A program made the position numbers and the translations under genes. DNA of 64,000 bases from Hydractinia symbiolongicarpus. Taxonomy: Eukaryota > Cnidaria > Hydrozoa > Anthoathecata > Hydractiniidae. Below the pieces are notes generated by a model. That model saw only the letters and a program-made list of their open reading frames with translations. It was not told where the DNA came from and searched no databases. The stretch spans positions 22,127,001-22,191,000 of the forward strand of contig NC_079875.1 in assembly GCF_029227915.1 (NCBI RefSeq), in the 5' to 3' direction. Below are positions 1,891 to 63,483 of the stretch, one piece after another; position 1 is the first letter of the stretch, and every line of letters begins with the position of its first letter.

Positions 1891-1900
1891 GGAAAACAAC

Positions 1901-2181
1901 CTAAGAAGTGGAATTCAATATAAGAATAAAAAAAATGTATAATTTTTCCAACAGATAATTTCAAATAAAGGATTGCAACTATTGGTGACGTATGGAAACA
2001 TGAAGACATTCGATTTTACAGCAGCTTATCATTCTACAAAATTAATATTGTATAAGGATGTATAAGAATCTGCCTAGTCTAATTTTATGTCATCAAATTT
2101 TCCCTAAAGTGATTGCTACATTTACTAAGTTTATTGTTTAAAACTTGTTGTTACTTAGCTTGATTAATATTGAAAACTTAC
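1901..2181 (-). other. 5'UTR intron of the acidic-protein gene
   Basis: On the minus strand a GTAAGT donor begins at 2181 and a pyrimidine-rich acceptor ends at 1901, ten bases before the start codon. The fit to consensus is good. The upstream non-coding exon and promoter lie above 2181 and cannot be delimited. Confidence 0.6.
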
Positions 2182-36384: not shown

Positions 36385-38280
<1,896 letters not shown>

Positions 38281-40609: not shown

Positions 40610-41849
40610 TTGTGCGCGAAAACGAGGCAAGTGTTGTGCCGTCGCTGGCTGTGTTGTGAACAAATGGCTGCTGTTGCTGCTGAAAAAAAAAGTCACTCGG
40701 TCATCAGTGTGCAGCTTATGGTTGTAACAACACTGGCCTGCTTATACGAGAAAACGGAAGAATTCCTTCTGTTATCAGTTTGTTTGTTTTTTTCCTGAAG
40801 AAGTTCATGAAAAAAACCGTGGTGTAATTTTATTAGACGCCAAGATGGAATGGTTGGCTTTAAGATCAAGGAAAGCACAAAAATTTGCGAGGTGCATTTT
40901 CCACTTTCACAATTATTAAAAACCCCTGGAGGGACAAAAAAGAAATTAATAAATGGTACCAAGCCTACACTTCATTCTTGGAATAATCTTAGAAAAGATA
41001 TTCATACTCGAAAGGCTCCAGTGGATAGAGCTTCTCCTCGTAAAAAATGCAGAATTATGACAAATGAAGATAATGAAAGTCAGGGAAGTACACAAGATGC
41101 TGATAAGACTAAAAATGATTTGCTTGAAGATGAAAACAAAAAATTAAAAGAGCAGTTATCAAAATTAGAGGAGGATTTGTTATCAAGCAAAAAAAATATT
41201 GGAAGTGTCAGCTAGCCTTAAAATGAGATTTACAGACCATGTGCTATCTTCAGACAAGTCGTGCAACCATTACACTGGGTTACCCAGTATCTCAATATTT
41301 TCTCATACATTAACCTTTTTAGATCCTGGTGTACTTGAGGAAAATGTGGTGTTATATAACAATCAAGAGGTTAAGGAAGATTCGAACAGAGGACGTAAAA
41401 GAAACTTATCTCCTGTTGAAGGTTTTTTATTAACTTTGGTTAGGTTAAAAAGAAATTTCGACATTAAACATTTGACATTTTTTGAAGTTTCAGAAGGAAC
41501 AATTACAAACAGAGTAAACAATTGGTTTAATGATATGTACATAAAATTTGGTTCAATATGTATTTGGCCAACTAGCGAAGCAGTAACTGATACCATGCCT
41601 GAATCTATGAAGAAAAAAATTCTAAATGTGCGCTGCATAATAGACTGTGTAGAATTCAAGGTGGCAGTTTCTACATCTCTAATGCTACACCAACAGATGT
41701 ATTCTGAACATAAAAGTCACACAACAAAAGTGTTAGTTGGCAAAAAAAAAAAAAAAACGTTTTTATGCTTTTTTATTGATAAACAAGCAACCAACAGTTC
41801 ATCACTTCTTTATGGAGCTTTCAGGCTTCATAATTTGCTTACCGCGTGA
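40610..41849 (+). pseudogene. Broken THAP-domain DDE transposase
   Basis: The 5' part holds a THAP-like zinc finger split by frameshifts: CAAYGCNN at about 40708, then in another frame ICEVHFPLSQLLKTPGG with KKLINGTKPTL, the conserved C-terminal half of a THAP domain. A charged coiled-coil stretch follows (DENKKLKEQLSKLEEDL), ending at 41215. A second frame from about 41205 carries a DDE_Tnp_4-type core: LLTLVRLKRNFDIKHL, WFNDMYIKFG, IIDCVEFKVAVSTSL (first catalytic Asp region) and MYSEHKSHTTKVLVG. The frame then runs into an A-tract and stops at 41849 before the later catalytic residues. Several frameshifts plus C-terminal truncation mean it is inactive. Confidence 0.75.
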
Positions 41850-42662
41850 CCCGAGCGTGTTATTTGGGAGATATATAAAATGTGGCCAAAATGATGGAGA
41901 GTTTAAACAATTGTAACATATTTAAAATACGGTATTGTGATCACCTCCTCAATAATAGTTACGCAACAAATCCTCCGTACGACACAGTTCGTCAGAGAGA
42001 AAAAGTCACACACTGGCCTCGTTTTGAGAAATGTTACGCAATAATTTAGGAAAAGGAGTATTACTCCATGCATGAGGGAAAGACCTTTATTTTTATGGGG
42101 GAGCATATTTGCTTAGTTTTGTGTTGTTGTTAAAAAAAGTTTATAATTTCAAATTTTCGCAAGGTTTGGGCGAAAGCCATAAAAATAAAAAATTTATTTC
42201 GCAAATACTTGTAAATGTGAAGTAAATTTTACTCGTGGTTAAGATGTTTTTTTTGTTATTGTTAAAATGTGATTCTATCTATTTTATCAATCTACCATAG
42301 ACATAAATATTCATAACGCTCTTAAAAACATGGTGAGTGAGGATTTGTGTGTTATGGGAAACGAACTGAATCTTCAAACATCAAAGTTTGGTTGTCATAG
42401 CAAAACTAATAAACTAATAAATAATTTATCACATCACCACCATCTGGTGTATTTTATATTAAGCTGCATTGAGTATCTATTGCAACTAATACAAAATAAC
42501 AATTAAAGTAAATTAAATAATGTAGTACAATGTGTTTTTCTCTCAATCAGTTGCCACGTTCGTTACAGCATCGCCAAGCACCACAATGTATACCTTCACA
42601 ACCAAACAACCGAACTAACAATAAGGCAAACATTAGGTCATGTTAGTTTGTTATATATGTTA
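41850..42662. other. Intergenic, no gene seen
   Basis: AT-rich. An inverted half-unit of the following minisatellite (AGTTTGTTATATATGTTACT) sits at 42644-42663. Confidence 0.45.
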
Positions 42663-42977
42663 CTTAGTAACATATATATCAAACTTAGTAACATATATAT
42701 CAAACTTAGTAACATATATATCAAACTTAGTAACATATATATCAAACTTAGTAACATATATATCAAACTTAGTAACATATATATCAAACTTAGTAACATA
42801 TATAACAAACTTAGTAACATATATAACAAACTTAGTAACATATATAACAAACTTAGTAACATATATATCAAACTTAGTAAGATATATAACAAACTTAGTA
42901 ACATATATAACAAACTTAGTAACATATATAACAAACTTAGTAACATATATAACAAACTTAGTAACATATATAACAAG
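42663..42977. repeat. 21-bp minisatellite, 15 units
   Basis: Fifteen tandem copies of CTTAGTAACATATATATCAAA or its AAC variant (ATATATAACAAA). Units 1-6 and 10 are the ATC type and the rest the AAC type; unit 11 has a G for C change. As 21 is divisible by three, three frames stay open for over 110 codons (YISNLVT, NIYIKLS, LLYMLLS), which is an artefact. Confidence 0.95.
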
Positions 42978-43323: not shown

Positions 43324-44487
43324 TTATGTTTCTTTACAAATTAGATGCTTAGCCTTCAGATTTAACCATTCATTTGAATATCCTGTATCACCCCCGTGAA
43401 TAGCGGTTAAGGGCAATCTCTCTTTCTCCTTGATTTCCCCTTTATCGTAATAGTAACCACTGGTAATAGAGCTATCACAGTTGCATTGATTTGATGCACT
43501 ATAGCAAGTGCCAGTTATACCACAAGAGCAATAGCTGGCTGCGTTTCCACCAGCCCAATATGGTATAATACTACCGTGTCGATCTTTAAGATAAATGTAC
43601 GGTGGGTTATAGGTATAGTACGGGTTGGCGTTGTGACAAGCCATTTCTGCATATTGAGTGCAACTCACTGATTGTTTAACCAATGATATCACTGCATCAA
43701 GACTTGTGGCGTTGTATTTCAGTATATGAGAAAAACTACCAGCAGCTTCCATTTTATCAACCCTAATGTATTCTTCATTATCATGGTGGACGTCAACGTA
43801 ATATTCGGTCCCCTCCTTTCGACAATGTACTTCGATGATTCCCATCTGACCAACTGGTTTAAGGTAAAACCAGCCGAAATCGACAGATTCTGATTGCAAA
43901 CCTTCTTTACAACTTTCATATGGAAATGCTAAACAGAAACGTATTTTTAAAAATTAAGTAAGCCGGTCAGAACTTAACATAAGTCAGCGTATTGAAGGGT
44001 GTTTTTTAGGAAGACAGGCCAAATATTCTTAATTTTAATTTCGCACACGAGAAAACAATAGAAAAAGAATAGGAACAAAAGGGTAAACATAAAATAAAAC
44101 AACCAAAAAAACAAAGTAGGGGAACGAGAAGTCACACAAACCTGATAGGCTATCATAATAATTCCAATCAGAATGGTGGACAAAATCGCTCATCTTTGTA
44201 TCCATACTATCCACTGAAAGCAAGTCACAGTTCTTCCCGTTTCTTTGGTGATTGAATGAGTAGCACGATGCATCCTTGAAGCACAAGATTCCACATTCTC
44301 TAAAATTGTCAACGATATGCTGCGCAAGCTTCGGCTTGTCTAAATATTTTCCACTAAATACTCGCCGAAATAACGCCTTTTTCTTGAAAGAGGAACGCTC
44401 CAAGCTACGCAAATTTATTGTAGTTACTTCGATATTAAAAAGTGCGTAAAGAAATGCCAGACAGAAAAAAACTCTGCTAACCTTCAT
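43324..44487 (-). CDS. Secreted PAN/apple plus CNTNAP-type fibrinogen-like protein
   Basis: Two exons, 44487-44142 and 43928-43324, joined by a GT–AG phase-1 intron (donor CAG|GTTTGTG, acceptor TTCTGTTTAG), give 951 nt (316 aa). Residues 1-22 are a signal peptide (VFFCLAFLYALFNIEV). Residues ~38-113 form a PAN/apple domain with Cys in NFRECGILCFKDASCYSFN and KNCDLL. Residues ~122-316 match the fibrinogen-like part of contactin-associated proteins: SCKEGLQ start, VHHDNEEYIRV, SFSHILKYNAT, YCSCGITGTC, CNCD, LPLTAIHGGDTG. No membrane segment, EGF or laminin-G domain follows, so it is a secreted two-domain protein; such proteins are frequent in cnidarians. It probably binds glycans or proteins outside the cell (inference). 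It lies head to head with the receptor kinase gene. Confidence 0.88.
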
Positions 44488-46029
44488 ATTTTAGCTAATT
44501 AAAAAAGAATTTAACATAGAAAATGTTCTCTACCTTATGAAAGTAACATCGTATTTTTCACATATTCAATTTCTATAATGGGAATACATTACAATAAATT
44601 GGATATTGATTTTGCTAGGTGACATAAGAAAAGTTGATTTAAGATGAAATCCAACATTTTACTCATTGGTGGACCAGAAAATCAACTTCAATGGCTGCAA
44701 TACAACCATTTTGTCAGTATTATATAGTACTTTAAATTTTTAAAATAAACATGTTTCTGTTATTTTGAAAGGACGGAAACAGCTAATTATTATTTACTCT
44801 AATTATCTTATCCTGTGGTGGAAACAGTAATGACACTCTGGTTTAAAATAAATTCATTTATCTTATGTCATAATAGTATCCAAAATCTTAAAATTGGAGA
44901 ACGTACAGAAAATAAATATTCCTACGCATTTAAAGAGTATTTATAAGAGGAAATGCTCAAAAGAAAACCTACACACCTGACAACATTAATTTCAAAACAG
45001 CCTTCAGGAGCTTTCATTCGAGTTCAGCCGTTGTTCCGAAATTAAACTTCGAGCAACCAAAACAAAGTCAGTAAAATCGGGTTATGCCGGAATTTTTATA
45101 GTAACAAAGCTACGTACAACCATTTTTAACAGAAAACAGCTATTATTATAGAGATAAGTTAGTGACCTGTGAAAAGATCCACGGGTTCGCCGCTCGTCCT
45201 TTATATACTGCATCTCGTGCATGTGACTACTACGGCACCATTGTGCGCAGATACCGACATATAACAGTAAAAATGAAGGTATTTGCTTTGGCAAAGAGTG
45301 GTAAATATTATATTTCACCTATATTTTTTCCCCAACAACAACGGGTAATCATGACAATCAATCAATAAACTTTTTAACGCCATTTTGTCCCACGGTAGCA
45401 TATATGAAATCCGCGTGACGAAACTTGCAAAAAAGACAGGTCCTTCTTTTCAGAAAGTACAGTACCAATTCGACAAGGTTTTTTTCACTACAGAATACAG
45501 CACAAGTGGAAACTCGAGTTGCCTAAAAAACTTTGGCAAAAAAAGATTTTTGGTATCAATACCGGATTGGTTTTAGGATCGGTCTAAAAAGCTTTTCGGT
45601 ATAGTGGAAACAACGCCTCAAGTATAACCCTTAATTCTTTGAAGTTATTTAATAAACGATAAAGTTTCCGATATATTTCATCCTTTTCTGCATGCAATTT
45701 TCCCACGCTTTATACCGATCATTTTTCTTTTCTTTTTTAATCTTTACAAATTTTATATATATATATATATATATAAATATAAATATAATTTTTTTTTATT
45801 CATTTACTTAAGTTTCTGAAACAAGAACCTTAAACCATAATGCATTCTATTTAGAATCTTTTTCAAAGAGAATTCAATTTAATTAGCGCTTACTATATAT
45901 TAGAACTAGAGCCAGGTGCAAAAGGAAACAGCATTTATCCTTTCGCAGTGTAAATCGCCAACAGTTGTTGAAGAATTAAAAGATAGAAGCGGGTCAAACT
46001 TACTAACTTACTTTAAAGCGTGCAATGTA
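44488..46029. other. Shared upstream region of the divergent PAN/CNTNAP and receptor genes
   Basis: Includes Helitron-like relics at about 45120-45245 (minus: a 5' end TCTCTATAATAATAGCTG abutting a decayed CACGGG hairpin 3' end), a TA microsatellite near 45756-45775, and A/T-rich promoter-like sequence. No other gene is supported. Confidence 0.45.
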
Positions 46030-46084
46030 ATGTTTTTACTAGCATTTTTGTGTGTGGTTGGTATTCTTTTTCTTCCACTAAGCG
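46030..46084 (+). other. Possible alternative leader exon of the receptor kinase
   Basis: ATG at 46030 opens 18 codons plus one base (MFLLAFLCVVGILFLPLS) ending at a strong GCG|GTAAGT donor. This is a typical signal-peptide exon in phase 1, the phase of the first exon of NIDO modules 2 to 6 and of the FN3 exons. If spliced to 49184 it would make a receptor without NIDO 1. Spliced instead to the TTTTTTTTAG acceptor near 46218 it would be a 5'UTR uORF. The main start used here is ATG 46326. Confidence 0.4.
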
Positions 46085-46325: not shown

Positions 46326-49300
46326 ATGTTAGTTTCTTATCTTTTTTTATTGTCTATATTTGTTACAACTCCTTATTGTCTCGTAGATTGTATGGAATGC
46401 ACGAACCAGCAACAGAAGTATGATTCAACTACGAAGAGTAATTTCTCCTTAATTGATGATAGAGACGTTAGAACGTCAAACCACAGAATAACTTCGCTAT
46501 GGCTTGAAGATTTTGATTCTTACTATAGAAGTCCAATATTGGACAAATGTTTCCAATACATTGATGACGGTCTTTTTGTAAGTTTTTTTTACCGTTTTTT
46601 TTGCGATCACTTTTGAAGCATACCGTTTTAACAGTACCAAAGTCATATTTCAGCCTTCTATCAAGTAATGTTACACACCGTTTGAAAGAGTTTTCATATT
46701 TCAAAGTTTATTTTCCAATATTTTAGCCTGTTTTCGGGATGAGAAATACTCATCTCTGATTGAATGACGTCATCTAAGATTTGTTTTATCTTAATTTTCC
46801 TCTAATATACAAACAAAAGCTATTTGGAATATTGAAGTTCTAAAAGTATTGCATCTGCTGGATGCTGGAAGTTTAAAAACATTCGTACTAGCAAAAATAC
46901 TAGGCAGGTGTTTTTTACCTTTTTTCACAGATTAGTTAGATATTACACATTTTTATAGAAAAAAAAAGTTTATAAGAAAATAACACTCAAGCAACCAAAA
47001 AAATGTAGAAAGTTTTAAGGAAATGTGAACAGTCTTATTTTATTGACCACAGTTCGTAATTTTCTGTTCTAATTAAAATTCAATGCTACCAATCGATGCT
47101 ACCTTGTGTTTTCTTGAACCTTCAGTTCAGCCTTAGGTTAAAAAAGTTATGTTACTTATATCACTGTTACCTTTTAAACATAAAAAACTTTGGTACCACA
47201 GTTGTTCCATCTGTTAAATGAAGTATATATACATTGCAGACACACTCTGAAAATTTGAAGTCAAAAGCTTTATACAATCTCAAATATTCATGTTACAAAT
47301 TTTCGAATTTAGTTAAAAACACAATCGTTAAAAAATCACAAAACAAAAATAAGTTTTATATGTATTACATATATTTTTATATTACTATTCATACGAGCTA
47401 TGTGTGAATCGTCTATCTGTTCTGCCTTAATTTGGGAAATTGCACCTTTTAAACCAAAATGACTCAAAACTTGCAGCAATCCTTTTTTACCAACATTGTA
47501 ATAAATGACAGCAGAGTGAACACCCATTTCAATGGTTTCCCAACCAACAAAAGTGACTTTTTGTATCCTAGACCATATAATACTGTTCAGCGCCCGTTAG
47601 CATTTTGGGGTTTTCCATGCATGCATTTCTGTAATAATTCATCAGATTAGGTCTTTGAATATTGGTTGGAGTAAGTTTTTGATAAATACAGGTATGGTGT
47701 TGGAAATTTTGTACCTTCTTAACCAGTACTTACACCAGCTGCTATTATCACGGGGACAGAACTGGTGACATGTCGTGAAATTTTTAAAATCTGTAAAATA
47801 AAAAAGTGTGCGCAAACGTATTTCAAGGCGTTCCGGAATATGTTTACCACATTCCAGTTTAATTGGTATAATGCCATGCTCCTCATAGGGATTTGACTTG
47901 ACCATATCATGAAGTACCTCTATCCCCTAAATATTCCTTGTAAATTAAATGATAATCGAACGATTAAATATGTTAATAGCACCACTCATTTGCGCCTGAT
48001 GATTTATCATGATTTATCTGATAGTTTCTTTCAAGCTTCAAAATTTCTTCTCAGATGTGTCTTTTATATTCTCCTACATTTTTATATTCTCCCACATTTT
48101 TATATTCTCCCACATTTTTATATTCTCCCACATTTTTATATTCTCCCACATTTTTATATTCTCCCACATTTTTATATTCTCCCACATTTTTATATTCTCC
48201 CACATTTTTTTATTCTCCCACATTTTTATATTCTCCCACATTTTTATATTCTCCCACATTTTTATATTCTCCCACATTTTTATATTCTCCCACATTTTTA
48301 TATTCTCCCACATTTTTATATTCTCCCACATTTTTATATTCTCCCACATTTTTATATTCTCCCACAATTTTATATTCTCCCACATTTTACATCCAAAGCA
48401 TTTCTTGATTTCACTTCAATGTCTATACATTTGTTTCTAGAGATAGATTTTACTACCCAATGTAACGAGGAATGTCCTCATAAGCCATCAAATGAAACAC
48501 GCGTACAAGATTTGTCATTGACAAAATCAATTTATAATTTTTAGTGTTCTGAAGTACTTTTAACGATATTTAGATGGGAATTCTTGGTTATTCAAATCAC
48601 GAAGTAAACAAACTAACATATGTATTTTATCTGACCATACATGATATCGAATATACCAAAGCATGTAACTTTACAAATGCAATCAATACAAGTGCGTACG
48701 CCCAAGAACTTTCAGATGATAAATTCACGGCTGATGAAACAGTTATCCTCACATACAATATAACTCAAGATACATTTACAGTTGATGAATTCCAACTTAT
48801 ATTTGTTTCAAATGAGAGCATCACATACGTTATATCAACAGCATGTAATGCTGGACACAATAAAAAAACTGGATTTCGTTCATTTTTACTGGCCGTTGGT
48901 TACTACAAATATTGTCCCTTTGATATCACATGCAGTAATCAACTAAAGATTGTCGAGATAGAACATAAACTTTGCACGAGGAGACCAGGTAATACTCATT
49001 TGTCAAGGTGTGCTTGGACACAATGAAAGACCTATTCAAAATTTTTAGTCTAACGATACAAAATTCTAAAAGGTTCTTACCGCGCACATTTCGTAACTAT
49101 GACTTGTGGCTAATCCATTTTATTATAATCCATTTTATTTTATTATAAAATACAATAACTTTCAATAAATAATTCTGTTCTAGTTACCTACACATTCTGG
49201 GGAAGTACCAATTATAAAGAGGGCAGCAAAATAATGCTACCAAAACCTTTTTTGTTTTTCTCAAGTTACACAGACCACATCATGGTAAGTCTTAACTTTT

Positions 49301-52300
49301 ACTAATTTTTACTGCTACAAATTTTCTTGTATATACAGTGGAAAAACAATTCCTTAAAAAGAAATTTTCATACATTGGTGAATCCTTGCTAACGTCAGCA
49401 AAATTTTTAGATTCTCGTGTCTCTTAAGAGTTCTTTAAGAGCACATGATGTTATACAATACTGTGACCAGAGCTTCAAGCTATATGCGACAGTGGCAAAT
49501 TTGTCAAAAAATATTCTTTGCTTAAGGATCGACTTTTTGCTTACTTCATCAAAATCTTAGTGCTGTAAACATTATTTTTTCTGAATTAAGGGGATTTTTT
49601 CCACGGACGTTCCACAAAATCCATCCACCAGTCAGAACCATTTAATCATCACAATTTCTTGTTTAGGTCAGTTCAAATGGTGCTCTATCAATTTCATCGG
49701 TTTCAAATGGCTACAAAAGTATACCAAATGAAGACACAGTATTTGTTATGGATAACATACCTCATAAAGATTCGTATTGGGGGAAAGAAATATATTTTAA
49801 ATACCAAACAACCCCCCTCTATTTAACGGCTGCTAATAATGACGTATCCAAATTTACTCTCACTCCATTTAAGGCTACAAAGATTCTAATTTTCACTGAT
49901 TTAAAATCCTACACATCAAAACAAGCAATCTTTGCTACAGACGACACCTCAACCTATGTGATTTTAAACTACCAAACACTTGAAAATGACGGTATGATTG
50001 GATACTCAGAAGTTTCTTGTGGAAGTAAAGTACTTTTTGACAAAAATTCAAGCCAGATGGTAATGCAAACATCCAATATTGGAGTACCTGGTCGACATGT
50101 GTTTCGCCTGACCCAAGATTGCACAGTGGCGGGTGATGTGATAACTGTTGCATTTTCACTAGTTGTTATTCCTTTAATTTGACATGATGTAACAAAATAG
50201 TTTTTAGCTTTTTTTACAGTGTCACAGCGCTGTAGGAAGATGATATTTGTGAGAGAGAGCCAGATTCAGTGCCTACCCAAAAGTTTCACATGAGAAATAA
50301 AAATCTAATGTCCATTTGCATATGATTCCATATTATTCCTAGCTAAATATTACCTCATATCAGCTCGTTCTTTTTTTTAATAATGTTAACATTGTTATTT
50401 ATTTGATTATAAAAGATTATCATGTCTATAGATATGTATCCATTTGGGTCAAGACAAGGTGATCAAAGTTTGCCTGTTTGCGATAACTGCACAGAGGTTT
50501 TGTCCCTTAAAACGAAAATCCCTCTAAAGTGGAAGAAAATTTCAAAACTTTACGTAAGATGTATTGGGTTATTAATAATACCTTACCTGTGGTGAATCAT
50601 ATCATAACAGACCATTATTTCAAGATGCAAGAAAAAAATTTGACAGTTCAACTGATCAAAAGGATATCAATTTTAATGTGATTTACGTTAATGTTTTACG
50701 TTCAGTATAAACATTTTCTAAAATACTTAGTAATATTCTATGGACCTAATATAAAATTTCAAAATCATTTAGATTCTTTGTAGGCTTCATAAAAAGTTAG
50801 TCTAATATAAGAATCCTACCGCAGTGTTTTTTGTCAGCCTTATACCCCTTTTTCTTTTAGATCAACTCTGACGGCTACATATCTGAAGGTCATTCAATCG
50901 AGCCGAACAAAGTAACGAGAGAGGAAAACGAACTATATTTTCAAATTGCTGCATACCATTTAGACTTTGATACTACTTTAGGTGGAGCAGTGTATTTTAG
51001 GGAAACAGGTGATGACTATATCATCTCTCGTGCGAACGCAGATATAAAGTTTATTTACCCTGAAGCTGCAGATGTCACCAACGCTGTTATCGTAACATAT
51101 GACAATATGGCGGCTCATAATGACACAGGACGAAATTCTTTTCAAGTTGTAATAGGGTACAACAATTTAACCAGTGCGTATTTGATAATCATCTACAAAT
51201 ATTTGATGTATGGGAATGCGTTGGCGATGTTTAAAAGTCTACCTTGTTCCAGAGTTGACGTAACAGCTACCTATGAATACGAGAATGCGTTTTATTTGGT
51301 GGGTAATCAAAAATCGAATAAACGAGGGAAATATATTTATGACCTGCATGGTGAAAACAAATGTAACGAAGGTAATTGTTTTTTTGTCTTACTTTCAACT
51401 CTCTGATCACAAAAAGAACATTAGAAACAATATGTTGATTTTAAAATTACCTTTAGTAAAATTAAATACTGCAAAACGCGGATTCTTTTTTACTGGTGGT
51501 AGATTGTACAATTCACTACCATTGAAATAAGAAAAATCCAAGGAATAAAAGCTTTTGGCAGTGAGTTTTCAAAATATTAATTTTAGACTTTATTTTTCAC
51601 CCTCTTTTTTCTTTTTTTCTGACATAATAATTATAATTGGCTTATAATACTATAATATTTAGCTTTTGTTTGAACACGACGAACGTTGATAACAGTTGCA
51701 TTGTATATATGGTACTTTCTATAATAACCGAAGTTCTTATCACGTATAAATATTCGCAAATAAATAAATATAAATAAATAAATAAATGAAAGTCAGAATA
51801 TGTAAGCAAAAACAATGGTAAAGTATTAGTAGCACTAAAGTTTCTATGTTTCACAATCCTAATTATTAAAAATGATATGTTGTTTTACATAAAAAGTTTT
51901 CTCTCCTTCTATGCTTCGACGAATGTTTTAGTAGGTAAATGTCTATTCTAGTTTGCAGAACAGACACTGCTAATAAACACTTGGCAATGCTTGATAAATA
52001 CGATTTAAAGTTGCTAAAAAAAACAAGAAACACAAACAAACATTCAATGATATTGAAGAAGATATACCCCCGTCTTACCGAAAAGTTATACGTAAGTTGT
52101 TCTGGTTATCCCTGGTTCCGCGTATTCTGTTACAAAAATTAATTATATTATTATAATTATGACAACTGCTCTGACTGCACTGGTCTTATCTTTGAAAGGG
52201 ACTCCAGTGACATTCATGACACAGAGAATGACAGTTAATGTAGACCTTTGATAAAAGACAAGTCTTGTTCTGTGTCATACTCTCACTCTGAGTATTTTCC

Positions 52301-55300
52301 AACCTTTTCCACAAATGCCTACGAACTTCTTGAGAAGAGGAAGAATTGCAACATTCAGATTCTAAAGAATCTAGATTCTAAATTTAAGAAGTCACTGGTC
52401 AAATCATTGTCTAATTTCTTTTTTTCTTTATTACAGATGACAGTTTTCGCAAATTCGTATGATCATCTAACCATAAACCGAACCACCTACATTGAATCAT
52501 GCAACATAGGCACTATACTGCAGGCTCAGCAAAGCATACGCGATTTCGATATGACCTTCACACCACAAGACGTAGTAAAAGTATCCTATTACATCAACTC
52601 AAATTTGACGGAGGAACAAAAGTTTGAAATCACTTTTGCTTCAAACAAAAATGCAACTTACGTTATCATGTCGCGATGTACACTGGGTCCTGGAAACATT
52701 CACGCAATTGGGTATTTCAAAAATTGTTCGTTTGCAATTACTTGCAAGTACTACGTAGAAACAAAGTTCATAGAACATAACAAATGTGGGAAACATGTCA
52801 CTCGTGAGTGCTCACATCTTCGTTTTATATATCGATTTTTCCATTTCGGGGTCCTCTTTTTTCAATAATCATATAAACTTCTTGCATCGTTATTAGTTAT
52901 GACATTGATTCGCAGATGTGTTTTTTCCCGCTTTGTTGTGACGCCTATTTGTCCGGTCGTACTACTTTGTAACGACGTTTGGTAACAACATTTTGTTTTT
53001 TTTGTATGTGGGAAACATATCCGTGTTACAAAAGAATTATCTAAAGATTTTTAAATTTTTACTCGTTTGCCTATTGTGAACATCATAACCTCGTGTATGA
53101 ACTCTTCAAAGTTCAATTTTTCGTTTTCCTTATTTTTTTTTTTTGAAGTCTTCTTATGCTGCATGTCGTTATGTCCTTTTGAATTTCGATAAGTTAACAA
53201 AGATCTGTGCTAAGTTTTCCATCATTATGATGTGTCCTTCATCACATTTGGTTGTTAAAAAACCCAGCTTCAACTTCTGTTCCGTCCCAAAAAATGCCTG
53301 GACTGAATGAGTTCTAAAATTAATTGTGGGTAAAAATATATCCAAAGTATCGCAGTTTTAATTAAAACTGTTGTCTTATCAATCAACTATTGCTTAATTG
53401 TTTTTACAGCAAAAGGTGTACTACTTAACTGCATTTAGCATAAGAAAGATTATTTGAAAACTTTGTTGCATCTAACTGTATTTAAGTATCTTACCTGATT
53501 TATCAGAGGTGGATAACAGCTAGATAGCTTCCAGTTGTAGAAAATCAAATTGGCTTTCTTACATATTCAGCCGAAATAAAAACACGTTGGCTACATCACT
53601 GTGGTCACCTTGTCACCGCAAAAGCAGTCGTCCAGCTGTAGTTACTTCGTGTCGTCCAGCTGTAGTTACTTCGTGTCGTCCAGCTACAGTTGGTGGAAGT
53701 TTTAAAGCGATTGCGTTGCTTAAATATTTTTAATATTTTTAACTAGTTTTAAGTGACTGCTATCTACATCTTCCCTTTAACAGTCTCTTTATTTTAGTAC
53801 TGTATCCGACAAAAGAAGACAAAAAAAGCGAACATGTTATTGAGTCGAAAAAGCGTAGTCGTTGTTCTTGGGAAAAGCCTTTTTTATTGTTTTCAACGGA
53901 AGCTACAAGTATAACAGTTAGTGCATTTTTCGTTATTTTTCTCGTAAACTTAAAATGTTCCTCCTGCGTTATTTTTTATTTCATTGCAAAATGTGTCTTT
54001 CTTTTGGAAAGTAGTATCATGAGATGCAATAATACAATCGGGACGACTTAAAATTATTTTAGGATCAGAAATCTTTACATTCACAGAGTTTTGTAAGCAA
54101 GAAAATGAGCATACACTTTCTCCAAGCGACACTAAAAGTTTTTAAATTCATCTTGAAGCTCCTAAAGTATTCAACGATTAATTCAGTATTTTAAATGCGC
54201 CACGTGTTGTTTTACATCAAAAGATGTTTCGCAGCTAATTCGTTGTCGAAAATATCACTCACACTTCGATTTGTAAAAATCCCTTTACACAAGAAATGAC
54301 CAAAATTCTATTTACTTTGTACGGCCTATATTTTCGAACCTAGATATCGAATTATTACCTATTTTTTTAATTTTAATATGTTTCGTCCATTTGCAGAAAA
54401 AAAATTTCAATATGACGAATGACTATTTTTTCGAAGTAGTTCAGATTCCATCTTCTTTACTTTTATTCACAAATGTCTCTCGCACTATTAAGCTTGCCAG
54501 ATAAACAAGCAAAAACGTATTAAAACCTAGGTTTTTTTGTTTTTTTAAAAAAAAATGAAAGTAAAATTTATTAACATAAACCAACCTAGAATTTACAATA
54601 TAAAACACAAATGACTAAAGACATTGTACGTGGAAAGATAACACTTTGAACATTGAAAGGGTGACATTACGATACGAAACAACATATAACTAATATTGAT
54701 TTAACAGTACATTTAGATGCAATCGTAAATTGAAGCTCTATTCGCCAACGCAAAGTCATTGAGATTAATGACCCTATCTAGCGTCGATCTAGAACCCCGA
54801 ACACATCGAATTGTCGACCGTAGCAACGAGAAACATATCTTTGTTCGTATGACATTCGTCGCTAAAGATACCGGAATGGACCGTTTTTCAGCAATCATAT
54901 TGACTAAGCTTTTAAAGAAGTTAAAACCTAGGTACTGGCCTTTTTTCTTTTTGTTCAAATGACTGTTTCTCTCTCCGTTTAGATTGAACATAGTTATATT
55001 TCAATTGAGCCAGAAAAATACACGTCAACAGATGCGAGGATATTATTGGTTTACGATGTAACAGAGGAAGACGTATCTATATCCAGCACGGTATACTGCG
55101 AATACACGGAAAACACCAACCTGATAAGGGCTGCCAACATGGATGTATCTAATCATACATTAACACCATTTTCTGCTAAACATCTGCTACTAGTAACATT
55201 CTCTAATGTGAAAAAAGGGATTTGGGACCCACGTTATTTTACATTTCAAGCAGTGTTGGCCTCTGATGGAAATGAAACATTTGCTATCTTGAACTACTTC

Positions 55301-58300
55301 AAATTAGAAGGAGACGCAACTTATATTGGCCACGAAGAGGAATTTTGTCTGAACTCCATATTTTACCAAAGTTTAGGCAGCACAGAATTAGTTCATACAT
55401 CAAATGTTGGAATACCTGGAAGACACGTGTTCAAACTAACATCGGAGATTGGATGCATACGGGCAAGTGAGTTATTTTGCGATACTTAGCTTGTTTACAT
55501 GCAGAAATATTTCTGCACTTTGTTTTATTGAAAAATAGTAACTATTCATATTGTTTCCGAGCGTGCTTTTTTATAAAAGCACGCTTGTGTACTGTTAAAA
55601 CGCAATTGCTCAATACACTCACGCTGTATTAAAGATGGCAGCGCGCCTAAGTTTTTGTTGGTCGTTTTGTTGGTCGTCAAATGCTTGAAATTCGATTGTC
55701 TGAACTTGAACAAAGCTGTCGAAAACATATCATAGCAAGATTCAATGAGAAGCCGTACCCAGTCCCGAATACTTTAAGTACCTGCTGGATGGAGCGGAGG
55801 CAAAAGTGAATCGATTCACATTACAACTTAAGTATCAATTTTATCCGGTACAGATTAAATTTTGATGTCAGTTGTTTTCACCTTAGCTCTTTACCCGCAT
55901 GGAGAGACAAGTGGCGATCTTGTAATGCCAAAAGGAGACAATCTTGTAGAGAAGTTGAAGCTTAACTCGCCGTTAGAATTAAACACAGGAATTATTCACG
56001 ATATATTTGTAAGATTAATTTTGTATTGCTCTGCTAATTTTCCCGTGTATTAATTTCCTCGAAATTAATTTAGGCCAAAGCATGGAAAATTAAACTTTCT
56101 AAAAAACGTGGGCCATTCCTTAAATATGTCTGCAAGAATACACAGAAAAAAAGAATTTGCTTTATTTTTTCTTTTGTTGATTGTTTATTAAACTCGATAC
56201 CTTCGAAGTTCCCACATTATAACACATCACAAAAACTTGTGCTCCGCAACAGCATTGAGAACACCATCTGTAAAAATTATATGAAGGAAATAACAAACAA
56301 CACATACCGGCCAAACATAGTTATTTAAGGTACATTTTCTCCTTTATTGTTCTTAGGCTGAACTTACTATTTCGTGTACATAGACCGACGTGTTATTTAG
56401 ATGAAGTGATTACTACCTCACCTATACTATTATCATATAGGGAATCGAGATCTTGTCTTCACTTTGTTTTAGGAATCGAAATATCATGTAAACGCCGCCC
56501 TAAACTTTAAAATTTATTCTTAAAATACGTCCTTGTTTTTCTTTTCTTGATCCATGTTTTAATATACTTTTTCTCAGTTAAGCACCAATGCTTTGATATC
56601 GACAAAGAGACTTTCATCTTCAACCGATTACCATCTGTATGTGCAGTATCCAAACACTATCATCGCACCATATAATCTAGACTATGACACAAGAATTAGC
56701 GGTGAGATATATTACAGAGAAACTAAGGAAGAACACACGTTAAAGCTAGCCTCTATGGACATCGATTCTGCGTTTGGAGTTAGTGTCAATATCACATCTG
56801 CAATTGTTGTCACTTATCTTGACATTGCAAGCAAAAATGCACCGCTTCTCAAAGATACATTTCAGGTTGTTATTGCATATAACGATAATGGCGACGCTTT
56901 TCTTATTTTGATTTTCAAGCAGCTGAAAAATCCAAGTGGGCTTGTGATGTTCTCGGAGAGTTCTTGTTGCAGCATCAATGTGAACAAACTATTCAATTAT
57001 GGTGACGCAAGATTTTTATCTGGTCATACAAACACTGCAGAAGGACTTGGGAAGTTTGTCATTGATTTAAAACGTGATTTTACAGGTGATTGCGTAAATA
57101 ACCTATCGTCTATTTCTTCTTCTAAGAATTTATTGTTCTACCAACTTGAAATTTTAAAGTTAAAAAGAATGCTTTGCTGACAGAGTAGGCATCCCACTGT
57201 TCGTATCAGGAAGAGTACTTTTTTTTTCTTTTTTCAGATGTTTTGCAAGAAAGCAAACAAAAACAAATCTACACCAACACAATTGGATATGATTTTATCA
57301 AAATCTCTTGGGAATTTGAAGCAAATAATCCGGCCATTATTACGCTCAACGTAGTTGGTGAATGGGAAACTAAATGGAAATATTTATCGTGTGATGTAAT
57401 TACCAGTGATGAATTTCATAACTTAATTCAAAATAAGACATACAAGATAGAGCTGATAGATGCTAACGGGAGTTTACCTGCGGTTGTGCTGTTCTCACCT
57501 GAAAAAATAGGCAAGCGTACCTTTTAATGCTTATATTCTTTAACTGGCTAACGCCTTACTATCCTGTTTAATTAACTTGAAAGAACATTGATCATTCAAC
57601 GCGGATACTTTAAAATTCAAATTTTTACTTTGTTCGAAAATAACAGTTTACTTAGTTGAAGCAATCTTTCATCTCTGCAGTTTTGTCATATTCAAATATA
57701 TCTCTTATGCCATCAAAGATGAAATCCTATGGTCACGGTAGTCCTTAACGTTTTCTTATCAATTTATTTTACCCATAAATTATTATTATTTGCTTATGGA
57801 TTACGATGTTATTTTAACTTAAGTACGGATGGCTCTGCCTTTCCTCTGACTGTAACTATGTTACATTATCTCTATACGTACAGCATTGCTCTAACTTGCT
57901 TGGCTGCCACACAAGCCGATTAGCGGTCAGTAGACGGCACCAAATAGGCTGACAACACTATATTCAAAGTGCACCTGAGTGGGGACTCGAACCTGAAACC
58001 TTATGATTAAAAACCAAATGCTCTACCACTACACCATTACTGCATTACGAGTTCCATTTCCAATGTAGGTGCTGTATCGAATGTTTCTATCAGACAAAAT
58101 GGACATCAATCGTTTTTATATTGGAAGACTCCCGTAGTAAAATTTGGAAATCCGGCAGTGGCTAAGACCTTCATCAAACATACAATGATAGAATCTGGCA
58201 AGGAATATAATTCCTTAATTTCGTCTTCCATTTATGAGAGTCAGTACAGTTTCAGTGGAGAGATAGGGTCAGAACATACTTTTGTTATAACTTTAGCAAT

Positions 58301-61300
58301 AAGAAATCAGCTTGGTCCTTCGGAAACAATCACATACACATTTGTAGGTAGGTATTAGACTGGTTACGAAATTTTGAGGGTATGTTACGCGTTTACTTTG
58401 TAAATTGAGCACATTATGATTCTACTCAACCTGAATTTCTTCTCAAAACAAAAAAATGTGAATCTAAAATTGTTACATGTTTTCAAGATCAAAATTTCTC
58501 CTTTAAATTGGCGACTCATTATATCTTTTAATTTTTAAGAAGTAGCGTATTTTATTTTTAACTAGCCAGGATACTCAACGTCCCACGCCGAGTGTAGCAT
58601 GGTAAAATGTTTTTTTTGGCTAAGTAGGTTTCCCGAAATTTCCAAAATAGTTTTCCGACAATGGTCAAGAATTGAATTATCTGCAAACTTCTACGTTTTA
58701 GAAACAGCAGAAAGTTCATCAACAAATATCATTATCATCGCGACGACTTCTGTGTGTGTTGTTCTGCTTGTTTTCCTCGCCATGGTGTTGTACTACAGAA
58801 AGAAAATGAAAAGAAGAAATAAATTTCTCTTCACGCAAACTGCTTACAAGGTAAGGGTTTTTTTCGTCCGCGATGTTCAAAAATCTAGACCTTAATATAT
58901 CACCTTAATGTGCACTCCTTGTTGAGAAACATTTAATCCTGTGACTCGGCGATACGCATTTCCCTATTTTCATTCAAAAACCTTTAGTTGGATCCAGATC
59001 GAAGCATTCTTGAACAATGCAATAACTTGACGTATGATACTAAGTTTGAATTTCCAAGAAAACACATCTCGTTGTTTCGAGTACTGGGCGAAGGCGCATT
59101 TGGTCAAGTATGGATGGCTTCAGCTAAACAGATGGAAAACTTTAAGCCAAGACAGATTAAGAAAAGGGCTAGTCTATGGAAGAGATACGGAACAAAGAAA
59201 AAGACGTTTGTAGCAGTTAAGACACTTAAAGGTTGTGATTATACATTTTTTTGTACTTATAAGAGCGTCATGGATACTAATTTTCAATGTTGAAATATAC
59301 CAACATATTAACAATCCAAAAGGTCTCGGGACCGGTAGTATCTTTACAAGAATAAGAACTTTAGCGTTAAGTGACTCTGTGTTTCAAACTCACAAGGTTT
59401 AAGAATAACAAAAAAACGGATAGTATATTTTTCTTTCTAACAAATAAAAATAATAAAATTGCAAATTTGTGAGGAAAAAAAAACGACTGAACTTTAAACT
59501 TGTTGGAATATTAAGAACAGCCGAAACATTGAATTTTCTGATATAGAAGCGAAAAATCTTTTAAATATAAGGTTTAGGGAGCTATTAAACTCTAGTTTAA
59601 AACTTTAAGGTTTCAGTCTTAGTAAGCAGTATTTTCAAAAGAGTGTTTCTCACATTTCTGGAGTATATAGATACCTTTTCTAATTTTATTTGACTGATAA
59701 AGTAAAAGCCATTTGGCGAGGCAAAGTTAAGCACAAACCAAAGATATTGACTTGATTTGATTTGATTTGATCAGCATACTTTTCAGAACAAAAATGACGT
59801 CACACCGTTTTCCCAACAATTATTTCTACCGAATTTGATTAACAGGGTAACTTGTTCAAAATTTTTTTTGTTCAAGATGGTTAATTTCCCTCTCCCGCCA
59901 TGGTTATATCGTGACTAAAATCCAACAAAAATTGGTTTAATATTTTTGTCGATTGAAGTTTGTTGCAACCATGGCTAATTTAAATGACTAGTCGTTAGCC
60001 CGTGGAAAAATCCACGGGTTCGCCCGTCCTTTTTATATTGCATTGCGTGCGTCTCGCTACTTGCGCAGCTAAGCTACCATTTTGCGTGACGGACAGACGT
60101 ATACGGGTATTTTAATATAGAAGACTACGATTTTAGGAGAATTCCTCTCACTTTCATGCAATAGAAATGTTTGATCAATTGAAGATGTGATATCGTAACA
60201 GGGCCAATGGCGAACACTACACCATCACATCTTTTCCATGTACCTTCATCGGGGAAGACCTGTTGCTTTTTATTTCGAACGATACACGTGAAGAAGGAAT
60301 AATGTGGTTTTATAGACTGTAAACATGTGTTCACAGTCTATAAAACCTTACCTACTCGAGACGTCCCACTGTAAAAATAAGATAAAGTGACATAAAATTT
60401 ATACTATCGGGAACCCGCAAAAAATGTTCCACTTACTTTTCTTACTTTGTAAACCGGAATTAAAAAATTATTTAACTCGATAACTCGAAGTCATTAATCT
60501 TTGGTTCACTTCGTAATTTTACACCGCAATAATTTAACCCTTATAATTTACCTTAACGTGTGCAAATGTTACTCTGATTCCAGATTATACTTATTTATAT
60601 TGAAGTGATTTTTCTTCTCAGCTGGTGCCACAGAATCTGACTATAAGGATCTTGCAAACGAACTTAAACTTCTAATACACCTTGGAGAACATCGAAACAT
60701 TGTCAATCTGCTTGGTGCATGCACTCGCGATGAGAATTTGTTGGTGATTCTTGAATATTGCTCAAATGGAGCTGTGTTGAATTATCTACGGTTAAATCGG
60801 GATGATTTTGAAGCTTCTTGGTATAAACAGAACAACGAGATCTTCAATCTTTATCAAATAACTTGGGTAGCGGTTCAAATTGCTGATGGGATGAACTTTT
60901 TAGAAGAAAAAAAAGTAACGCAAGTTTTATTGTTTCGGTGTGTTGTGTGTACTATAGATATTATACTTCCCACGGGTATTATTCGCGTTCTTAAACTGTA
61001 AGAAAAGTTTGAATTTCCGATAAAAACTAAATGTCATTCATTGGTCTGGATTGCTACAAACGTTTTGTCACTTTAAGTCCTTGATGTTGATCAAAATCAC
61101 ATGGTGTAAAGCCGATCATCTTCCTTTTTTTGTCAAACAAATATTTTATTTTTATTTTAAGTGTGTACATCGCGATCTAGCAGCAAGAAACGTTCTTTTA
61201 ACGGAGAAAATGTACGCAAAAATAGCTGATTTTGGTCTCGCAAGAAACACTGAGGGAACAGACTATTACAAAAAAGAAACGGAAGGAAATCTTCCCATTA

Positions 61301-63483
61301 AGTGGATGTCCCCGGAAGCTATAACGCATCAAAAGTACACCACTAAAAGTGACGTGTAAGATATTCTGTTTTGAACAAATACGTAACGAAACGTTATACC
61401 CTTGTTTCTAAGATATAGTAAGATACTTTTACAACGATTTTTTCAGACTTTGAAGTTATTACTCTATTATATTTAAAATATAGCTATTTCTGATAATAAT
61501 AAAAAGCGACATTCAATTAATTTTAACGCCGGAGAAGTTGAATTATGCGTTTCGTTTAGCATTATCAGGGTTCACGACGCACACTTTCTTATTTTTCAGT
61601 TGGTCGTTCGGCATTCTACTCTGGGAAATTTACTCACTCGGTTCGACACCCTACCCAGGTGTTAAAAATGCTGACGTGCTAAAATACGTCAAAAGAGGAA
61701 CAAGAATGTCAAAACCAAAGCATTGTGAAGAAGACATTTATCAGTTAATGTTGCAATGTTGGTCAGGACCCTCCGAACTTAGACCTTCATTTATTGATTT
61801 GCGTAATAACATCGATCAAGTGTTGGTTAAAAATGTATGTATCAGGAAATTTTATAAGTTTGTTTGAAAAATAGTAAAGGGCAAAGTCAAAGAATAACAA
61901 TCGATATGTGTAACAATGTAACGACGTTGTTATTGACAAATAAGAAAAGCAAATTGCTTACTACACCACCTGTTTCCTTTACCATCATTTGCACACACCA
62001 TTTTTTAATAAACGTATTCTTGTTACATAGTTTTGGTACTCGAAATATGCAACATCTTGCAGTCGCTAACCCTGATCTCAACCAGAACTATTTTACTTCG
62101 TGTATCGGTTTAGTTATGTGTGAACAGACACTATAGCTGATCAATGAATCGTCCGGAAACAACATTAATCTGAATTGTATGAACACGGTGAAATATTTCT
62201 TGTTAATTCATTTATTTACTACATAGGAACAAAGCATGTTCGGAGGACAGTCGTTGGCGAATGTTTACAAAATAGCGTCGTTGAAATCTTCACAAAGATA
62301 CACCGAAACAAAAAGGTTAGCCACTGCTTTTTACTTTCCACAAATATTGTATGCAATTTCATTAAATTAAACCCTTTTTGTTTATTATTGTTAGAGTTTT
62401 TCTCGCGCTCTGATTGGCCAATCTACACGAATGTGCTATATTTTTATTTTCTACCGAGAAACGAGTGCAATTTTTACTTATTTTTTAATTTTACAGTGCA
62501 GCTGATATTTTTTCTCTGATTGGCTGAAATAGGGTGCAAGAAGCTGATATTTTCTTCCCGATTGGTTAATAACTCGCTGAGAAAAGTAACTTGTCGGAAA
62601 ATTTGTTCCACAATTTCTCCTCATAAAAAACATAATTTTTTTACAAAACAAACTAACAATATCAATGACAAATATTCACAGTTTAATTATTCTTTTGTTT
62701 CAACATAGTTATTAAAAAGAAAAGTGCCAGTGCTCTACACCGTAAAGATATTTAATTCGATTATTAAACATAGTTGTGATTAGCTGTATTCTCTGATTTT
62801 ATTTGACCCACTGCTACGGGATAGTGTTTTTCGAATAGTATTCCCACAGATGTGTGACGTAAAGTATACCTGTACTATCTGCCCCAGCTAGATGCACGGC
62901 TCGGTTAACCAGCACCTAAGAGCTCAAACTGGCGTTCAACGTCAGGCTACCCACCTATTATTGCGTATTCGATTGGTTCGTTTAAGATACATACATTTTA
63001 TGCTAATTTTAATACTCGCTTCTAAGCTTACGCAAAATTAAACTGATTTCTTTTGACGAGAACATTTAAATAAAAATCTTGTTTTAAATATTTTTTAGTG
63101 AGAAACTTACTGTTTATGATGACGATTTGCCTGCAGAAAAATCTGTTGGACAAAATGATGAAAATTCTTATGATGACACATACCAAACCGACGACTATCT
63201 CACGCTGGAAGAAAATGGTTTCCAAGAGGAAAACGAAGAAGAAGCATGTGAAGATAATTTGGGACTTCAGAAAGATTGTGCTCCAGAAGAAAGCAAAGCA
63301 AGCTTTACCATTGATGATAGTTACATCAGTTTAGTAGAAAATGACAAAAATGCTGGAAGAAATCAATTTGTCGAAACGCAAGAAGAAAACTGGAAGGCTG
63401 ACAGTGAACTTCAAAGCGAAAATGGAGACAAAGGACGTTCAAATGGGATGTCGGAAGAAGCAATAGAACTAGAAAAAATATGA
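46326..63483 (+). CDS. Receptor tyrosine kinase with NIDO x6 and FN3 x2 ectodomain
   Basis: Twenty-one exons: 46326-46577, 48574-48988, 49184-49284, 49667-50132, 50432-50553, 50861-51371, 51952-52091, 52437-52803, 53798-53916, 54983-55466, 55887-56008, 56578-57085, 57238-57510, 58069-58347, 58702-58850, 58988-59231, 60622-60914, 61162-61355, 61600-61834, 62227-62315, 63099-63483. Phases agree throughout and sum to 5748 nt, 1915 aa. Signal peptide at residues 1-20 ([17 protein letters not shown]); six NIDO-like domains to ~1202; two FN3-like regions to ~1386; transmembrane helix ~1395-1417; kinase ~1463-1758; acidic tail to 1915. It should be a type I surface receptor that phosphorylates itself and partners on tyrosine after ligand binding. 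Kinase and juxtamembrane ([12 protein letters not shown]) look like the PDGFR/KIT/FGFR group. The least certain joins are exon 1 to 2, the GC donor at 57511 and the GTTGTG donor at 59232. Ligand unknown. Confidence 0.85.
47477..47910 (+). pseudogene. Decayed NIDO exon inside receptor intron 1
   Basis: One reading frame contains, in the right order, pieces resembling a NIDO second exon: [42 protein letters not shown] and [16 protein letters not shown] (compare [10 protein letters not shown]...AFLILIF in module 6). The frame is broken by four stop codons (TAG, TAA, TAA, TGA) without splice sites that would remove them. A possible end fragment, [14 protein letters not shown], follows the minisatellite at about 48430-48475. 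It looks like the fossil of an extra module. The similarity is partial and could in part be chance; the opposite strand also has an 88-codon open frame (47905-47642) of unknown meaning. Confidence 0.45.
48063..48388. repeat. 18-bp minisatellite, ~18 units, in receptor intron 1
   Basis: About eighteen near-identical copies of TATATTCTCCCACATTTT. The unit length keeps several frames open on both strands (FYILPH, IFSHIF, LYSPTF, MWENIK), all artefacts. Confidence 0.95.
49325..49616 (+). mobile_element. Old Helitron-like relic in receptor intron 3
   Basis: Diverged copy of the 3976-4728 family: CTAACGTCAGCAAAATTTTTAGA, GCACATGATGTTATACA, and a remnant of the 3' hairpin (GGATTTTTTCCACGG). Both ends are eroded. 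Confidence 0.5.
53627..53688. repeat. 24-bp direct repeat, 2.5 units, intronic
   Basis: GTCGTCCAGCTGTAGTTACTTCGT twice, then a partial third copy, in the intron before NIDO module 5. Confidence 0.85.
57238..58347 (+). other. Ectodomain part 2: two FN3-like domains
   Basis: Exons 57238-57510 and 58069-58347, each a symmetric phase-1 unit of ~90 codons, match the size and phase of FN3 exons. The second has an FN3-like ending ([22 protein letters not shown]). The first has ISWEF, a central Trp and [12 protein letters not shown], and is less typical. The intron between them has a GC donor (ATAG|GCAAGC at 57511). Confidence 0.6.
57800..58046 (-). mobile_element. tRNA-derived SINE in the receptor intron
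   Basis: On the minus strand 58046-57972 reads GGTGTAGTGGTAGAGC (A box), a Lys-like TTTTTAAT anticodon loop, and GGTTCGAGTCCCC (B box). The acceptor ends do not pair and the T-stem is poor, so it is a SINE head. The body runs to about 57800. It ends only ~22 bases before the acceptor of the second FN3 exon. Confidence 0.55.
58702..58850 (+). other. Transmembrane exon of the receptor
   Basis: Encodes residues 1387-1436: a Ser/Thr-rich stalk, a ~22-residue hydrophobic helix ([20 protein letters not shown]) and a basic stop-transfer ([11 protein letters not shown]). One transmembrane segment, type I orientation. Confidence 0.9.
58988..61834 (+). other. Tyrosine kinase domain of the receptor
   Basis: Four exons encode residues 1437-1758. 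Glycine loop LGEGAFGQV (~1469-1477), catalytic Lys in FVAVKTL (~1514), alpha-C Glu in [17 protein letters not shown] (1618-1625), DFG (1638-1640), paired activation-loop tyrosines YYKK (1650-1651), [21 protein letters not shown] and [11 protein letters not shown]. All residues needed for catalysis are present. The kinase insert is short. A basic insertion of about 25 residues lies between strands beta-2 and beta-3 ([20 protein letters not shown]). The HRDLAARN form and YYKK loop identify a tyrosine rather than serine kinase. Confidence 0.95.
59988..60121 (-). mobile_element. Short Helitron-like element in a kinase-domain intron, 134 bp
   Basis: On the minus strand starts TCTATATTAAAATACCCG and ends with hairpin CCCGTGGATTTTTCCACGGG, spacer and CTAG (59991-59988) followed by T. 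Same subfamily as unit 2 of the 17-kb array (GCGTGCGTCTCGCTACTTG). Sits in the long intron between the first two kinase exons. Confidence 0.75.
62227..63483 (+). other. Cytoplasmic tail exons of the receptor
   Basis: Exons 62227-62315 and 63099-63483 encode residues ~1759-1915. The last exon is strongly acidic and holds tyrosines in [18 protein letters not shown] and DDSYISL contexts, candidate SH2-docking sites. The first tail exon ([14 protein letters not shown]) is predicted only from splice sites and phase. Confidence 0.75.

What the first reader, a model, noticed from the sequence alone, without database searches (positions are those of the whole stretch)
46326..63483. Receptor tyrosine kinase with six NIDO domains and two FN3 domains outside
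Seen: 21 exons splice with consistent phase into 1915 codons, with NIDO signatures ([31 protein letters not shown]) upstream of a transmembrane helix and a complete tyrosine kinase. Known: NIDO is a matrix and cell-surface domain (nidogen, tectorin, mucin-4) and is not part of the standard vertebrate RTK classes. Inferred: this is a distinct receptor class sensing matrix or NIDO-type partners. I know of no described family with this layout but could not search.
Basis: partly seen in the sequence, partly recalled or inferred. Interest (0 to 1): 0.88.

Follow-up and report, generated by a model that had tools for sequence, protein, structure and literature searches.

The report
Receptor kinase with nidogen-like ectodomain
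This animal gene appears to encode a cell-surface receptor whose inside half is an ordinary growth-factor-receptor-type enzyme, while its outside half is built from repeated modules of a kind known from matrix and mucus proteins.

Summary
The gene model holds: 21 exons give 1915 codons with no internal stop and all 20 junctions in phase. Pfam finds a complete tyrosine kinase (302 bits) and NIDO (147 bits, four stretches) in the spliced product.

"Six NIDO" is partly right. Four modules pass Pfam's cut-off. The other two match no Pfam NIDO but share the intron layout and have a weak profile match. The six form a three-module block present twice, A-B-C-A'-B'-C'. "Two FN3" is not supported.

The kinase is FGFR-like, with the catalytic motifs I looked for present. 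Best explanation: an active receptor tyrosine kinase with an exon-shuffled nidogen-like ectodomain; the ligand is unknown. The first exon is uncertain.

No other animal could be examined: the protein database was off, structure prediction was off, and the genome search did not complete (and nine genome calls). Ten capped literature searches showed no NIDO receptor kinase, which is weak evidence of absence. A new variant of a known kind, resting on one uncorroborated gene model.

The parts
46326..46577 (+).
   Evidence: lowest codon score of the 21 exons, 0.04
46030..46084 (+). alternative first coding exon, signal peptide MFLLAFLCVVGILFLPLS, phase 1, spliced to 46387 (would give a 1913-residue protein) or to 46270
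   Evidence: donor score 5.99; acceptors 46387 (5.73) and 46270 (7.55); both joins keep the frame open; not proven
48574..48988 (+). E2, module A (diverged NIDO-like)
   Evidence: matches E8 at 27-29%, E 3e-10; no Pfam NIDO; hhalign of A+A' to module B E 0.004, 0 of 300 shuffles
49184..50132 (+). E3 (49184-49284) and E4 (49667-50132), module B, NIDO
   Evidence: PF06119 30.9 bits, cut-off 25 (protein 2)
50432..51371 (+). E5 (50432-50553) and E6 (50861-51371), module C, NIDO
   Evidence: PF06119 60.3 bits (protein 3)
51952..52803 (+). E7 (51952-52091) and E8 (52437-52803), module A' (diverged NIDO-like)
53798..55466 (+). E9 (53798-53916) and E10 (54983-55466), module B', NIDO
   Evidence: PF06119 49.9 bits (protein 6); contains [13 protein letters not shown]
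55887..57085 (+). E11 (55887-56008) and E12 (56578-57085), module C', NIDO
   Evidence: PF06119 59.2 bits (protein 7); contains GEIYYRET and [10 protein letters not shown]
57238..57510 (+).
   Evidence: no FN3 match
58069..58347 (+).
   Evidence: no FN3 match
58702..58850 (+). E15, transmembrane helix ([24 protein letters not shown]) and juxtamembrane
   Evidence: hydropathy maximum 2.88 at residue 1396
58988..59231 (+). E16, kinase N-lobe: GEGAFG (residue 1470), VAVK lysine 1514
60622..60914 (+). E17, kinase: alpha-C glutamate 1531 (by alignment to FGFR2), hinge
61162..61355 (+). E18, kinase: HRDLAARN (1618), DFG (1638), activation-loop YY (1650-1651), SPE (1665)
61600..61834 (+). E19, kinase C-lobe
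62227..62315 (+). E20, start of cytoplasmic tail
   Evidence: in-phase, codon score 0.36
63099..63483 (+). E21, cytoplasmic tail with Y1821 (DDYLTL) and Y1863 (DDSYISL), stop; AATAAA at 63483 and 63498

Best explanation
One gene encodes a single-pass receptor tyrosine kinase. Seen in the predicted product: a signal peptide, an ectodomain of six two-exon modules arranged A-B-C-A'-B'-C' (four recognisable as NIDO, two diverged), two unassigned membrane-proximal modules, one transmembrane helix, an FGFR-like kinase with the catalytic motifs intact, and a tyrosine-bearing tail. Also seen: each of A, B and C resembles its primed partner. Inferred for origin: a three-module block was duplicated and joined by phase-1 exon shuffling to an FGFR-type kinase. 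Inferred for working: the NIDO array binds a multivalent partner, most likely extracellular matrix or mucus-type polymers, or NIDO proteins on another surface. Clustering then lets two kinases phosphorylate each other on the paired activation-loop tyrosines (Y1650/Y1651), and tail tyrosines in acid-x-Y-[LI]-[TS]-L-like motifs recruit SH2 proteins, in the manner of the FGFR tail site for phospholipase C gamma (that site is recalled, not from a call).
For: 21 exons in phase, 1915 codons. NIDO 6.4e-43 and kinase 3.1e-90 in one product. Modules B, C, B', C' each pass the NIDO cut-off. A~A', B~B', C~C' self-matches. Module-boundary introns phase 1 in 8 of 8 and mid-module introns phase 0 in 6 of 6. 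FGFRs fill 59 of the 60 rows shown, out of 2496 PDB sequences matched; the other row, ranked first, is an EGFR chain with two summed copies. 141 of 291 aligned residues identical to FGFR2, and the catalytic motifs looked for were found. NIDO-to-TM introns are short (152, 558, 354 bp) with no AATAAA.
Against: No transcript and no orthologue. Splice sites were chosen to keep phase, so phase agreement is partly built in. The first exon and exon 13's donor are ambiguous. Modules A and A' fail Pfam NIDO, and the FN3 spacers are not confirmed. One ATTAAA (58006) and hydrophobic open frames (57729, 58599) lie between NIDO and kinase exons. Nothing shows what the array binds.
Confidence: 0.8

Rival explanations
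1. Two adjacent genes: a secreted or membrane NIDO protein (E1-E12) and a separate FGFR-like RTK (E13-E21) with its own signal peptide, joined here only by the exon model.
For: Splice joins are predicted only. Open frames with hydrophobic starts lie between E12 and E15, at 57729 and 58599, and one ATTAAA at 58006. AATAAA also occurs earlier in the gene, e.g. between E6 and E7.
Against: 152 bp between E12 and E13 leaves little room for a terminator, promoter and signal exon. No AATAAA between 53575 and 58818. The E12, E13, E14 and E15 joins are all phase 1.
Confidence: 0.08
2. A real NIDO-RTK whose ectodomain mainly works as a homophilic or trans recognition surface (allorecognition-like or pathogen sensing) rather than as a matrix sensor.
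For: Tandem diverging modules (27-35% identity) and 19 N-glycosylation sequons in the first 1390 residues. NIDO is listed as a domain indicating extracellular localisation in a cnidarian pattern-recognition survey (PMC8260672, passage).
Against: No sign of a gene cluster in this window: every tblastn match of the model at E up to 0.01 lies inside this one gene. Polymorphism could not be tested.
Confidence: 0.3
3. A decaying or non-expressed duplicate of an RTK gene.
For: No transcript data. The first exon is weakly supported.
Against: No stop or frameshift in 1915 codons; kinase motifs intact; model frame best in 20 of 21 exons.
Confidence: 0.04

Closest known systems
FGFR family receptor tyrosine kinases
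   Same: Kinase domain: FGFR1-3 fill 59 of the 60 PDB rows shown, 141 of 291 residues identical to FGFR2, YYKK activation loop
   Different: No immunoglobulin-like match in the ectodomain at E up to 1; FGFR ectodomains are Ig-like (recalled)
NIDO proteins: nidogen, alpha-tectorin, MUC4
   Same: Four PF06119 modules above cut-off
   Different: MUC4 carries NIDO with AMOP and VWD (PMC9080433 passages); partners of the others are recalled; none is known to me to carry a kinase
Venus kinase receptors and Hydra Sweet tooth
   Same: RTKs confined to invertebrates or one organism: VKR (PMC4026697 and PMC3703292, abstract starts), Sweet tooth (PMC3703292, passage)
   Different: VKR has a Venus flytrap ectodomain and an insulin-receptor-like kinase (abstract starts); Sweet tooth's lectin ectodomain is recalled
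DDR (discoidin domain receptors)
   Same: Would work like it if the matrix-binding reading is right (recalled)
   Different: Discoidin ectodomain (recalled); no discoidin match here at E up to 1

Membership tests
Receptor tyrosine kinase | extracellular part, single transmembrane helix, cytoplasmic tyrosine kinase in one polypeptide | tested here: met
   Spliced model, TM at about 1395, PF07714 3.1e-90; from predicted splicing, not cDNA
Receptor tyrosine kinase | catalytic residues intact | tested here: met
   K1514, E1531, HRD 1618, DFG 1638, SPE 1665 located from motif positions; activity not tested
FGFR family | FGFR-type kinase domain | tested here: met
   Best single-domain PDB matches shown are FGFRs, 286 bits; only 60 of 2496 rows were shown and no tree was built, so this is by similarity only
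FGFR family | immunoglobulin-like ectodomain | tested here: not met
   Pfam scan of the whole protein lists no Ig family at E up to 1
NIDO domain (PF06119) | score above gathering cut-off, modules B, C, B', C' | tested here: met
   30.9, 60.3, 49.9, 59.2 bits against 25
NIDO domain (PF06119) | score above gathering cut-off, modules A and A' | tested here: not met
   No NIDO match at E up to 10. Profile match to B E 0.004, 0 of 300 shuffles reach it; to B+C E 0.005, 1 of 300; to C alone E 0.19
Fibronectin type III (PF00041) | detectable match in exons 13 and 14 | tested here: not met
   No Pfam match (E13 and E14 at E up to 1; E14 at E up to 10); no PDB match at E up to 10; hhalign to one recalled consensus no better than shuffles, 99 and 61 of 150 reach the observed score, without a positive control
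Undescribed NIDO-RTK class | same architecture in other species | not testable with these tools
   Protein database off, genome search unanswered (9 calls); NIDO-module scans of viral and prokaryote contigs found no relative

The most novel reading that the evidence does not exclude
This is one member of an undescribed class of receptor tyrosine kinases in which a duplicated three-module nidogen-type array was shuffled onto an FGFR-type kinase, so that a cell can turn contact with matrix or mucus polymers, or with NIDO proteins on another cell, directly into tyrosine phosphorylation.
Probability: 0.35. Interest if true: 0.7.

Novelty: new variant of a known kind. Interest (0 to 1): 0.52.

Why it matters
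Receptor tyrosine kinase classes are told apart largely by their ectodomains. A NIDO array on an FGFR-like kinase would add a matrix- or mucus-type recognition surface to that list, and would be a clear case of ectodomain exchange by phase-1 exon shuffling and block duplication. RTKs confined to invertebrates, such as VKR and Sweet tooth, are already known, so the kind of surprise is familiar; the specific pairing is what I did not find in the sources searched.

Tried and rejected
FN3 for exons 13 and 14: Pfam, NCBIfam (a library for bacteria and archaea, so a weak test), PDB sequences and a profile comparison with one recalled consensus. In one search there was no positive control with a real FN3, and the two other exons run alongside gave 5 of 150 (E12) and 150 of 150 (E8) shuffles at or above the observed score, so that test has little power. 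I leave FN3 unproven rather than excluded.

Separate-genes rival: kept, low. PDB relatives of the four NIDO second exons: one hit at E 0.18 to an unrelated enzyme, taken as chance. Relatives in viral contigs and prokaryote contigs: 52, 2 and 52 stretches matched a pattern, none confirmed. Exon boundaries: E6 was one base short, and E21 started four bases late; both corrected. The script stopped with an error after printing the exon table. A wrong acceptor base for the alternative first exon was corrected. Of seven candidate acceptors joined to the 46030-46084 exon, two keep an open frame of the right length, 46270 and 46387; 46270 scores higher (7.55 against 5.73). The strongest acceptor nearby, 46219 (12.38), gives a stop when joined to that exon. 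Codon scores did not decide the start: -0.35 and -0.26 bits per codon for the two signal-peptide pieces.

Literature: ten searches. At most 20 papers were listed per search, of up to 595 that matched, so most matches were not seen. Passages of ten papers were seen; none of the passages shown describes NIDO and a receptor tyrosine kinase in one protein. Against certainty: the sponge survey PMC8242945 names tyrosine kinase domains among its putative cytokine receptors and NIDO among 'other domains' in a figure I could not see. The library holds open-licence papers only, no supplement look-ups were allowed, and architecture databases were not available.

Full report
What was checked. With GT-AG sites, and a GC donor at exon 13, 21 exons from 46326 to 63483 join into 1915 codons with one terminal stop. 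Codon usage, scored exon by exon with that exon left out of training, favours the model frame in 20 of 21 exons; the exception, E16, scores higher in a frame holding 11 stops.

Domains. Pfam on the whole product gives the tyrosine kinase (302 bits, profile 3-257 of 258) and NIDO (147 bits, four stretches passing on their own). Scanned one by one, modules E3-E4, E5-E6, E9-E10 and E11-E12 reach 30.9, 60.3, 49.9 and 59.2 bits against a cut-off of 25. Modules E1-E2 and E7-E8 give no NIDO match at E up to 10.

The ectodomain is a doubled triple. Matching the product back to the window at E up to 0.01, E2 matches E8 (27-29%, E 3e-10), E4 matches E10 (35%, E 1e-18) and E6 matches E12 (33-35%, E 2e-21 to 5e-21), and every match lies inside the gene. 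So the order is A-B-C-A'-B'-C'. Every module boundary from E2/E3 through E14/E15 is a phase 1 intron (8 of 8) and every mid-module intron is phase 0 (6 of 6). That symmetry is the usual mark of exon shuffling (general knowledge). B and C are clearly related to each other (hhalign 95%, E 2e-8; 0 of 100 shuffles). A is only weakly related to B (E 0.004, 0 of 300 column shuffles) and to B+C (E 0.005, 1 of 300), and not detectably to C alone (E 0.19). I therefore call A and A' diverged NIDO-like modules, likely but not proven.

FN3 is not supported. Exons 13 and 14 are phase 1-1 modules of 91 and 93 residues next to the membrane, a place where FN3 would be ordinary. But Pfam and PDB sequence searches find none, and comparison with one recalled FN3 consensus is no better than shuffled sequence, in a test without a positive control. 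A structure model could settle it; that tool was off.

Kinase. Of 2496 PDB sequences matched, the 60 shown are 59 FGFR1-3 entries and one EGFR. The EGFR row ranks first only because two copies of 160.7 bits are summed; FGFR2 scores 283 for one domain. Identity to FGFR2 is 141 of 291 aligned residues. The glycine loop, VAVK lysine, alpha-C glutamate (by alignment), [11 protein letters not shown], paired activation-loop tyrosines and SPE are all present. The tail holds two like motifs, DDYLTL and DDSYISL. The FGFR tail site EYLDL, which binds phospholipase C gamma, is similar, but that is recalled.

One gene or two. The gap from the last NIDO exon to exon 13 is 152 bp, then 558, 354 and 137 bp to the first kinase exon. 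On the + strand no AATAAA lies between 53575 and 58818, while two lie at the stop codon (63483, 63498). Against this, one ATTAAA lies at 58006 in the E13-E14 intron, and open frames with hydrophobic starts exist at 57729 and 58599, so a separate or alternative promoter is not excluded. I put the single gene at about 0.9.

The start. The 61 bases at the front of exon 1 are 70% pyrimidine and score as non-coding. They end in an acceptor-like site at 46387 (score 5.73, near the middle of the 20 model acceptors). Upstream, 46030-46084 encodes MFLLAFLCVVGILFLPLS with a donor scoring 5.99, equalled or beaten by 4.4% of the 3353 GT sites in the window. Joined, the frame is open and phase 1, like the other module starts, and the protein would be 1913 residues. 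But a second acceptor, 46270, scores higher (7.55) and also keeps the frame open, leaving two hydrophobic stretches in a row. The short signal exon also scores as non-coding (-0.26).

Relatives and literature. No eukaryote collection could be searched: the protein database was off and the genome search did not answer in nine tries. Scans of viral and prokaryote contigs with NIDO modules confirmed no relative. Ten paper searches, each listing at most 20 titles, and passages of ten papers showed no NIDO-RTK. In the holozoan tyrosine kinome study PMC8662651 the main text holds no word beginning 'nido' (passages only). In a sponge survey, PMC8242945, tyrosine kinase receptors and NIDO both appear, the latter in a figure legend; whether in one protein I could not see.

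Mechanism. Most likely a working receptor: the array binds a multivalent partner, kinases cluster, the paired tyrosines are phosphorylated in trans, tail sites recruit SH2 proteins. Anatomy and catalytic motifs are read from the predicted product; splicing, binding partner and signalling are inferred. Matrix or mucus is my first choice of partner because NIDO proteins otherwise occur there (recalled); a trans-cell or homophilic partner is a serious alternative (0.3).

Noticed in passing
window 36794-37180, - strand: Astacin-type metalloprotease piece (PF01400 4.5e-21); the neighbouring open frames 36388-36630 and 37643-38083 gave no Pfam match but may belong to it.
   Followed up: partly
window 43327-44490, - strand: Open frame with a signal-peptide-like start (by eye) and a PAN domain (PF00024 3.8e-07, 44038-44490), next to a cysteine-bearing frame without a Pfam match (43327-43953); 1.5-1.8 kb upstream of the receptor and in the opposite direction.
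   Followed up: partly
window 11825-12859, - strand: C2 domain (PF00168 2.4e-11) after a hydrophobic segment; synaptotagmin-like by eye.
   Followed up: partly
window 23010-25190, - strand: Pieces that look like a broken LINE reverse transcriptase; only 23680-24069 matched (PF00078 29.2 bits, cut-off 29.6), 23010-23324 did not.
   Followed up: no
window 41169-41846, + strand: Transposase-like frame: HTH_Tnp_4 26.7 bits (cut-off 27) and DDE_Tnp_4 19.8 bits (cut-off 24.8), both below cut-off.
   Followed up: no
window 48062-48388: 18-bp minisatellite, about 18 copies at 98% match, inside intron 1 of the receptor gene; another 21-bp array, 15 copies, at 42662-42976.
   Followed up: no
window 967-1914, - strand: Acidic open frame of 316 residues with a signal-peptide-like start (by eye) and no Pfam match at E up to 0.01.
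   Followed up: no
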